A stretch of DNA of 52,496 nucleotides from Candidatus Moraniibacteriota bacterium (lineage in GTDB: Bacteria; Patescibacteriota; Minisyncoccia; Moranbacterales; UBA2206). Made by a program: the position numbers and the translations under genes. Below the pieces are notes generated by a model. That model was not told the DNA's origin and searched no databases. It worked only from the letters and a program-made list of their open reading frames with translations. The stretch spans positions 1 through 52,496 of the forward strand of contig JAUXSK010000019.1 in NCBI GenBank assembly GCA_030679995.1. The letters run 5' to 3'. Shown here one piece after another: positions 10,876 through 17,092 of this stretch (positions within the stretch are counted from its first letter, which is position 1; each line of letters begins with the position of its first letter).

Positions 10876-11034
10876 CGGTGCGCCCTGAGGGATTTTCGCG
10901 TCGTCCGCGGCGGACTCCTTGTCCTGGGCAGCGCTGGATGCTCGCTTGCTCACATCCATCGTCGTTTGTCTGTGCCGCGGCGGGCTTGCTTCACTCCTGC
11001 CCGTTCGAATTCCTCATGGAAAATTTAAAAAAAA
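10876..11034 (-). repeat. tRNA-appended element, copy A (behind tRNA-Arg-TCG)
   Basis: Read on the minus strand, the tRNA-Arg 3-prime end is followed by a short U-rich spacer, then an inverted copy of the tRNA's own T-arm strand (11003-11019, 15 of 17 matching), a GC-rich core, and a 19-bp direct copy of the tRNA 3-prime end (10876-10894, identical to 11035-11053). The core of about 115 bp is shared, with few changes, with copy B at tRNA-Glu. It contains hairpins GGGCAG/CTGCCC, GGATGT/GCATCC and GTCCGC/GCGGAC. No protein-coding content is credible. I know of no name for this element. Confidence 0.85.
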
Positions 11035-11037
11035 CGG

Positions 11038-11110
11038 TGCGCCCTGAGGGATTCGAACCCCCGGCCCTCTGGTTCGAAGCCAGATACTCTATCCACTGAG
11101 CTAAGGGCGC
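11038..11110 (-). tRNA. tRNA-Arg (anticodon TCG)
   Basis: A complete cloverleaf on the minus strand: acceptor GCGCCCT/AGGGCGC, D-arm AGCTCAGTGGATAGAGT, anticodon loop CTTCGAA (TCG) on stem TCTGG/CCAGA, and T-arm GGGGGTTCGAATCCC. The gene has A73 and then CC but not the full CCA. With tRNA-Arg(GCG) at 23882-23954 it can read all four CGN codons. Copy A of the tRNA-appended element follows its 3-prime end. Confidence 0.96.
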
Positions 11111-16796: not shown

Positions 16797-16874
16797 GCCG
16801 CCATCGTCTAGCCCGGTCAGGACGCCAGGTTTTCATCCTGGAAATCAGGGGTTCGAATCCCCTTGGCGGTACCA
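16797..16874 (+). tRNA. tRNA-Glu (anticodon TTC)
   Basis: Acceptor GCCGCCA/TGGCGGT (first pair G-T), D-arm TCTAGCCCGGTCAGGA, anticodon stem CCAGG/CCTGG with loop TTTTCAT (TTC), T-arm AGGGGTTCGAATCCCCT, and an encoded CCA. Its 3-prime end and the terminator behind it are duplicated 180 bp downstream as part of copy B of the tRNA-appended element. Confidence 0.96.
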
Positions 16875-17092
16875 AAAAGAAAAGCTTCCCTTAACAGGAA
16901 GTTTTTTTGTCGTCAAGGGGATTCGAACGGGCAGAGGTGAGGCAAGCCGCCGCGGCGCAGACGAATGCCGATGGATGCGAGCAAGCGAGCGTTCAGCGCT
17001 GCCCAGGACAAGGAGTCCGCCGCGGACGACGCGAAAATCCCCTTGGCGGTACCAAAAAGAAAAGCTTCTCTTAACAGGAAGTTTTTTTTGTC
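16856..17092 (+). repeat. tRNA-appended element, copy B (behind tRNA-Glu)
   Basis: The last 16 bases before the CCA of tRNA-Glu, the CCA and the terminator (16856-16911) are repeated almost exactly at 17036-17092, 180 bp away. Between them are an inverted copy of the T-arm strand (AAGGGGATTCGAAC, from 16915) and a GC-rich core nearly identical to copy A. The ends AAGGGGATT (16915-16923) and AATCCCCTT (17036-17044) are perfect inverted repeats. Inside are stems GGGCAG/CTGCCC (16929-16934 with 16999-17004), GGATGC/GCGTTC (16973-16994) and GTCCGC/GCGGAC (17015-17027). Confidence 0.87.
16884..16908 (+). terminator. Terminator of tRNA-Glu
   Basis: Stem CTTCC/GGAAG with a 7-nt loop followed by seven T. 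A second copy with one stem mismatch occurs at 17064-17089 as part of the duplication. Confidence 0.7.

What the first reader, a model, noticed from the sequence alone, without database searches (positions are those of the whole stretch)
16856..17092. tRNA-Glu is followed by an inverted and a direct copy of its own 3-prime end, enclosing a structured GC-rich core
The tRNA 3-prime end plus its terminator is duplicated 180 bp downstream, and an inverted copy of the T-arm strand opens the insert. The core folds into several stems. The inverted copy (AAGGGGATTCGAAC) could pair either with the tRNA's own T-arm strand or with the distal copy, so the element could interfere with folding or processing of the tRNA precursor, or mark a tRNA-targeting mobile unit that rebuilds the target end. 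I know of no described element with this plan.
Basis: partly seen in the sequence, partly recalled or inferred. Interest (0 to 1): 0.88.

Follow-up and report, generated by a model that had tools for sequence, protein, structure and literature searches.

The report
Tiny mobile element invading tRNA genes
A roughly 110-base folded, non-coding piece of DNA has spread among the tRNA genes of tiny uncultured bacteria, leaving each tRNA intact by duplicating its 3' end and always carrying a 10-base stretch complementary to the exact spot it entered; no enzyme that moves it could be identified.

Summary
The core is one copy of a repeated, structured, non-coding element. The window holds a second copy after tRNA-Arg (10895-11012, minus strand), and the genome at least four. 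With a covariance model I collected 102 copies in Patescibacteria; 83 lie directly 3' of a tRNA or tmRNA (14 amino acids plus tmRNA). The shared plan is: intact tRNA; spacer (often a terminator); 10-nt arm S' complementary to the host's own T-loop (positions 53-62, centred on the insertion point); three-helix core; displaced copy of the tRNA from A58 to its end. S' follows host T-loop variants (11 of 590 mismatches; shuffled hosts about 69), including positions absent from the displaced copy. One genome's eight copies, at several different tRNA types, form one clade, so both ends are remade from each target. Related genomes show the empty sites. One copy sits in the last codons of a helicase gene and again carries an arm matching that target (9 of 10). 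No Rfam family, phage or plasmid match was found. A single-contig genome with eight copies has no detectable tyrosine recombinase, reverse transcriptase or Cas1. Best reading: a non-autonomous mobile element whose insertion involves base pairing with the target, mobilised by an unknown enzyme.

The parts
16797..16874 (+). Host tRNA-Glu(TTC), intact (regenerated) target
   Evidence: ARAGORN and Rfam
16851..16860 (+). Target site: T-loop GTTCGAATCC (positions 53-62); insertion point between 57 and 58 (16855|16856)
   Evidence: Direct-repeat start at 16856; same start in other copies
16856..16908 (+). Proximal copy of the direct repeat (tRNA A58 to 3' end plus terminator)
   Evidence: in most other copies the repeat covers only A58 to the tRNA end (17-20 nt)
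16880..16908 (+). Terminator-like hairpin with T-run between tRNA and element
   Evidence: sequence; similar hairpins in most copies
16919..16928 (+). S' arm GGATTCGAAC, reverse complement of host T-loop 53-62; complementarity extends to 16915
16929..17035 (+). Structured core: P2 16929-16934/16999-17004; inner hairpin 16969-16978/16989-16998; P3 with tandem G.A 17012-17019/17023-17030
   Evidence: covariation in A2; R1 score 123.9 bits (this copy is in the training set)
17036..17054 (+). Displaced copy of tRNA-Glu 3' end (A58 on); pairs with S' to close the fold (P1)
17036..17088 (+). Distal copy of the 53-nt direct repeat including second terminator
11036..11110 (-). Host tRNA-Arg(TCG) of the second copy
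11003..11012 (-). S' arm of second copy, GAATTCGAAC (9 of 10 to tRNA-Arg T-loop)
10895..11002 (-). Core of second copy, about 91% identical to the first
   Evidence: R1 117.2 bits
10877..10894 (-). Displaced copy of tRNA-Arg 3' end; native terminator and downstream DNA follow (empty ortholog in G001)

Best explanation
A non-autonomous, non-coding mobile element of Patescibacteria. SHOWN: it lies at the T-loop (between positions 57 and 58) of many kinds of tRNA gene and of tmRNA; the tRNA next to it stays whole and the 3' part of the target (A58 to the end, about 19 nt, sometimes more) is present twice; the core is a conserved three-helix fold closed by pairing of S' with the displaced tRNA end; S' is complementary to 5+5 nt around the insertion point of whatever target is occupied; relatives have empty sites; copies of one clade sit at different tRNA types with new ends. 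INFERRED: it moves as a folded single strand (DNA at least as likely as RNA) that pairs through S' with the target loop, an enzyme supplied in trans joins it there, and S' and the duplicated end are remade from the new target during insertion or repair. NOT KNOWN: the enzyme, the strand, and whether S' selects the target or is copied from it.
For: Repetition at different tRNAs in one genome. Empty sites: tRNA-Arg filled in G000, empty in G001; filled in G023, empty in G022, native downstream DNA on the distal side; tRNA-Glu empty in G011 ahead of what looks like the same downstream gene. Of 102 copies, 83 lie within 230 nt 3' of a tRNA/tmRNA on the same strand. S' versus own host T-loop: 11/590 mismatches against a shuffled mean of 68.6 (minimum 53 in 20,000); positions 53-57, absent from the displaced copy, 3/295 against 16.0. 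Structure: 91.8% of cells paired against 30-47% when slid, 18 of 31 pairs with double changes, no shuffle as high. Clade of eight G184 copies at Thr, Glu, Gly and Lys tRNAs, support 100/100. Off-tRNA copy in the last codons of a UvrD-type helicase gene with a 17-20 nt duplication and S' 9/10 complementary to that site, relatives without it. tmRNA copy, 10/10. Tandem arrays of whole units.
Against: No mobilising gene found. Within-genome similarity of cores could partly reflect gene conversion. The direct repeat in the window runs 34 nt past the tRNA, longer than in most copies. Two copies in G364 (L281, L283) lie in a tRNA D-loop on the 5' side and do not show the S' rule. S' was located as the best match near a fixed place, a small bias (offset 0 or 1 in most of the 59). 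Wobble pairs are only slightly commoner than A-C mismatches (44 versus 26), so neither the RNA form nor the strand is established. No element has been seen to move.
Confidence: 0.62

Rival explanations
1. Miniature integrative islands: circles carrying a tRNA 3' end are inserted at the T-loop by a tyrosine recombinase in trans, regenerating the tRNA, like ordinary tRNA islands.
For: Same signature (regenerated target plus displaced fragment, tandem arrays), T-loop is a known crossover subsite (PMC4383910). Larger insertions sit at the same tRNAs (1.6 kb in G006, 1.7 kb with an AbiEii-type pair in G022). 38 of 40 genomes searched have a PF00589 protein.
Against: G214 (eight copies, one contig) and G270 (four copies) have no PF00589 match. 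Copies of one clade sit at different tRNA types with that tRNA's own end, which a carried end would not give without breaking the tRNA. It does not explain S' or its tracking of positions 53-57.
Confidence: 0.18
2. A structured RNA that acts on its neighbour tRNA: S' pairs with the T-arm of the precursor and controls folding, processing or 3'-end choice.
For: Adjacency, strand, covarying fold, exact complementarity to the host T-loop.
Against: Present in only 19 of 380 sampled genomes of the phylum and at different tRNAs in each. A terminator often separates tRNA and core. In G007 tRNA-Arg has G59 while S' and the displaced copy keep A59; A59 is the state in G000 and G023, so the pairing seems not to have been maintained. 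Pairing shows little wobble excess over A-C, unlike tRNA acceptor stems from the same loci (21 versus 1; that control favours paired stems). One copy is in a protein gene.
Confidence: 0.1
3. Enzyme-free spread by replication template switching: stalled synthesis at tRNA hairpins jumps to another copy and back, duplicating the tRNA end, and quasi-palindrome correction makes S' match.
For: S' is an inverted copy of the target and in several Moranbacteria copies continues 8-9 nt further into the acceptor strand. Tandem units and partial duplications occur. No enzyme was found.
Against: The insertion point is nearly constant (57|58) in dozens of tRNAs and the core boundaries are fixed, which suggests a specific enzyme. 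The G007 mismatch suggests that S' is not continually corrected.
Confidence: 0.1

Closest known systems
tRNA/tmRNA-integrated genomic islands (tyrosine integrase; T-loop subsite; Islander, PMC4383910)
   Same: Regenerated tRNA at one side, displaced 3' fragment at the other; T-loop crossover; tandem arrays; tmRNA also used.
   Different: About 110-190 bp instead of at least 2 kb (Islander rejects shorter ones and those without an integrase), no integrase, a conserved folded core, an arm complementary to the target, and spread between tRNA types.
Integron cassettes with attC sites (folded single-strand recombination sites, PMC2727003)
   Same: A folded site whose outer arms are inverse copies of the recombination site, the last part contributed by the next unit or the host; tandem arrays.
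   Different: Target is a tRNA loop, no integron integrase shown, the core is conserved in sequence and has a three-way plan, usually no gene in the unit, and the inverse arm changes with the target.
Group I introns in bacterial tRNA genes
   Same: Found in the same bacteria (two elements sit after intron-bearing tRNAs); an internal guide pairing with both exon ends recalls S' pairing with 5+5 nt around the junction.
   Different: No group I core in the element (no Rfam match), the tRNA is not interrupted, the core is about 105 nt, and S' matches each new target.
Short non-coding mobile repeats of bacteria (MITEs, REP/RAYT; general knowledge)
   Same: Short, folded, non-coding, repeated, presumably mobilised in trans.
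   Different: No fixed terminal inverted repeats; the inverted arm is target-derived; duplication of about 17-20 nt; strict tRNA-loop preference.

Membership tests
tRNA-integrated islands (tyrosine integrase) | Intact tRNA plus displaced 3' fragment flanking the insert | tested here: met
tRNA-integrated islands (tyrosine integrase) | Integrase gene in the element | tested here: not met
   the usual unit (under 200 bp) has no room for such a gene; no PF00589 match anywhere in G214 or G270
tRNA-integrated islands (tyrosine integrase) | attP carries the target fragment, so element lineages stay with one tRNA | tested here: not met
   one clade at Thr, Glu, Gly and Lys tRNAs of G184
Integron cassettes | attC-like foldable site at the unit end | tested here: inconclusive
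   folded, covarying site with inverse arm, but a conserved three-helix core and no attC consensus
Integron cassettes | Integron integrase in the genome | tested here: not met
   no PF00589 match in G214 or G270; IntI was not searched separately elsewhere
Group I intron | Group I catalytic core | tested here: not met
   no Rfam match to the element, while true group I introns in neighbouring tRNAs are found
Any Rfam RNA family | Score above the family's gathering threshold | tested here: not met
Retroelement (RT-mobilised) | Reverse transcriptase in the genome | tested here: not met
   no PF00078 in G000, G214, G184 and others with copies
Casposon / Cas1-mediated insertion | Cas1-type integrase | tested here: not met
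   1 of 26 element-bearing genomes has Cas1
MITE / IS derivative | Terminal inverted repeats shared with a transposase-bearing relative | tested here: inconclusive
   no fixed terminal repeats seen; transposase families other than PF00589, PF00078 and PF01867 were not searched

The most novel reading that the evidence does not exclude
A self-retargeting mobile element: a minimal folded nucleic acid finds tRNA loops by pairing a 10-nt arm across the insertion point and rewrites that arm and its flanking duplication from each new target, moved by a class of enzyme not yet recognised.
Probability: 0.35. Interest if true: 0.93.

Novelty: categorically new. Interest (0 to 1): 0.86.

Why it matters
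Patescibacteria are among the least understood bacteria and few of their mobile elements are described. A roughly 110-nt element that inserts into nearly every kind of tRNA gene without damage, with an arm complementary to each target, would be one of the smallest site-directed mobile elements known. It would point to an unrecognised mobilising enzyme, possibly a base-pair-directed one. Because the copies carry natural target variants (off-tRNA, tmRNA, TTCA and GTCCGA loops), the pairing rule can be tested directly.

Tried and rejected
Chance repeat or local artefact: rejected by copies in many genomes. Known RNA family: no match at gathering or relaxed thresholds. Phage or plasmid element: no hits in phage and plasmid records nor with left-end patterns in IMG/VR; six IMG/VR pattern hits score at most 18 bits with the model and are treated as chance. 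Presence outside Patescibacteria: of 79 further loci from the genome-wide pattern, only Patescibacteria loci and a few unnamed-bacterium contigs that match family genomes score over 40 bits. Tyrosine recombinase, reverse transcriptase and Cas1 as mobiliser: not consistently present. RNA form inferred from wobble pairs: I first thought so, but 44 G-U against 26 A-C cells is weak. A viral-contig search with the neighbouring glycosyltransferase gave nothing. Literature searches for this plan found no description, but the library is open-access only and one intended search failed. Dropped: that the 53-nt repeat is a simple target duplication; other copies show 17-20 nt, so the longer one may be a remnant of a tandem unit.

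Full report
OBSERVATION. In the window, tRNA-Glu(TTC) at 16797-16874 is followed by a 53-nt direct repeat of its own 3' part and terminator (16856-16908 and 17036-17088, 98% identical) and by an inverted copy of the T-arm. The stretch folds better than all dinucleotide shuffles.

IT IS A REPEATED ELEMENT. A DNA search of the window's own genome (31 contigs, 99% complete) finds further copies: in the window itself after tRNA-Arg(TCG) (10895-11012, minus strand), after tRNA-Glu(CTC) and, decayed, after tRNA-Gly(TCC). Nine of 34 family genomes have copies, again after tRNAs Glu, Arg, Gly, Tyr, Gln and Leu. A relative's contig (G001:C19) has the same length and the same element sequence as a Candidatus Moraniibacteriota record, so the window is most likely from that group. 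A pattern scan of one genome per species found 90 stretches; those with the full plan are in Moranbacteria, Uhrbacteria and other Patescibacteria, or in unnamed-bacterium contigs whose sizes match family genomes. A covariance model finds it in 19 of 380 genomes of the phylum, in about ten families, with up to eight copies per genome, and in 16 of 49 genomes of one order.

ANATOMY. All copies share: intact tRNA; a spacer of about 6-75 nt, often a hairpin terminator; S', ten nt complementary to positions 53-62 of the tRNA; a core that opens GGGCAG, GGGTTG or similar and closes with its complement, an inner variable hairpin, then a second hairpin with tandem G.A pairs; then the tRNA again from A58 (or 59) to its 3' end, followed by native DNA. 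S' pairs with the displaced end to close the fold. On 24 sequences the structure pairs in 91.8% of cells (30-47% when slid); 18 of 31 pairs show changes on both sides, and no shuffle reaches the covariation score. Wobble pairs (44) are only slightly commoner than A-C mismatches (26), whereas tRNA acceptor stems from the same loci show 21 against 1 (that control selects well-paired stems). The fold therefore need not be RNA; folded single-stranded DNA is at least as likely.

HOSTS. Of 102 copies examined, 83 lie within 230 nt 3' of a tRNA or tmRNA on the same strand, covering 14 amino acids and tmRNA, median distance 52 nt. The rest are mostly later members of arrays, copies at contig ends, or copies beside tRNA remnants. 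Two follow tRNAs that carry group I introns. The model was trained on tRNA-adjacent copies and includes the arms, so the fraction is somewhat biased, although the search itself covered whole genomes.

THE ARM MATCHES THE HOST. Over 59 copies with a nearby host, S' has 11 mismatches in 590 positions to its own host's T-loop; hosts shuffled among copies give 68.6 (minimum 53 of 20,000). At positions 53-57, which the displaced copy lacks, 3 of 295 against 16.0. Odd T-loops are followed exactly: GTCCGA, GTGCGA and TTCA loops in Glu, Pro, Leu and Met tRNAs. In some Moranbacteria the complementarity continues 8-9 nt into the acceptor strand, differently for Glu, Lys and Ser. In G007 tRNA-Arg the host carries G59 while S' and the displaced copy keep A59, the state of tRNA-Arg in G000 and G023. 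The match therefore seems to be set at insertion and not maintained afterwards.

IT MOVES. Empty sites: tRNA-Arg is occupied in G000 and empty in G001, and occupied in G023 and empty in G022, with the native downstream sequence on the distal side. tRNA-Glu is empty in G011 ahead of what looks like the same gene that follows in the window (read from the protein start, not aligned). In the tree of cores, all eight G184 copies, at Thr, Glu, Gly and Lys tRNAs, form one clade (100/100), and copies cluster by genome (27 changes against 48.4 shuffled; about 110 columns, so many forks are unresolved). Spread between tRNA types with new ends means that the flanking tRNA copies and S' come from the target; gene conversion among resident copies is the alternative I cannot exclude. 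One copy (G214, L228) sits in the last codons of a UvrD/PD-(D/E)XK helicase gene, with the target duplicated and S' 9/10 complementary to it. Two family relatives end the gene at the same place without the insert. A copy in the tmRNA T-loop has S' 10/10. Whole units also occur in tandem.

WHAT MOVES IT IS UNKNOWN. G214, a single-contig genome with eight copies, has no PF00589, PF00078 or Cas1 match; G000 has tyrosine recombinases but no reverse transcriptase; Cas1 is in 1 of 26 element-bearing genomes. It is absent from phage and plasmid records and not found with left-end patterns in IMG/VR. Other transposase families were not searched.

MECHANISM. Best supported: a folded, probably single-stranded form pairs by S' with the loop around the insertion point (5+5 nt) and is joined there by an enzyme in trans, with the target's 3' part duplicated and S' matched to the new target. 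The pairing and the duplication are shown; the single-strand form, the enzyme and the order of events are inferred. The regenerated-target signature is that of tRNA islands (PMC4383910), but no integrase is present, the unit is far shorter, and lineages change tRNA type. The folded site with an inverse arm completed by the neighbouring sequence resembles integron attC (PMC2727003, abstract only), but the core is conserved and S' changes with the target. I therefore file it in neither.

LIMITS. MAG data; no transcripts; no observed movement; S' located by best match near a fixed position; two G364 copies in tRNA D-loops do not fit the rule and are unexplained.

Noticed in passing
L281 and L283 (G364:C2:91265-91394 and G364:C10:263038-263143): Two relatives of the element lie in the D-loop at the 5' side of tRNA-Asn and tRNA-Glu, with the tRNA 5' part and upstream DNA duplicated instead of the 3' part; the S' rule is not evident.
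   Followed up: partly
L064 2247-3195 (minus), G022:C24: Between tRNA-Glu(CTC) and a downstream element copy lies a 1.7-kb stretch with an AbiEii-type nucleotidyltransferase and a DUF6922 protein, like a toxin-antitoxin cargo, with a second inverted T-arm copy next to the tRNA.
   Followed up: partly
L051, L060, L062 (G009, G027, G030), downstream of tRNA-Glu: A different short insert (AATTGGTGTGGGGCAAG..., about 30-60 nt) is followed by a second copy of the tRNA 3' part; perhaps a second family of the same habit.
   Followed up: no
L068 and L067 (G001:C19, G001:C23): Damaged tRNA-Glu copies carry inserted GC-rich palindromes (CCTCGCCTCGACGAGCGGTCGTC... and CCTGCCTGCCGGCAGG); the latter kind also sits between S' and core in some element copies (L011, L256).
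   Followed up: no
L221 6373-6648 (minus) and L258 2634-2988: Group I introns in tRNA genes that are also hosts of the element; the L221 one lies beside an HNH ORF, and L258 has a similar small ORF without a Pfam match.
   Followed up: partly
L222 (G297:C33:14000-25000): Two element copies 3 kb apart downstream of tRNA-His, with a reverse transcriptase gene and a Fic protein gene in the stretch between tRNA and second copy.
   Followed up: partly
L069 (G022:C24:59500-62760): After the element at tRNA-Gln a third copy of the tRNA end lies several hundred bp further on with a terminator, as if a larger island had entered the same tRNA.
   Followed up: no
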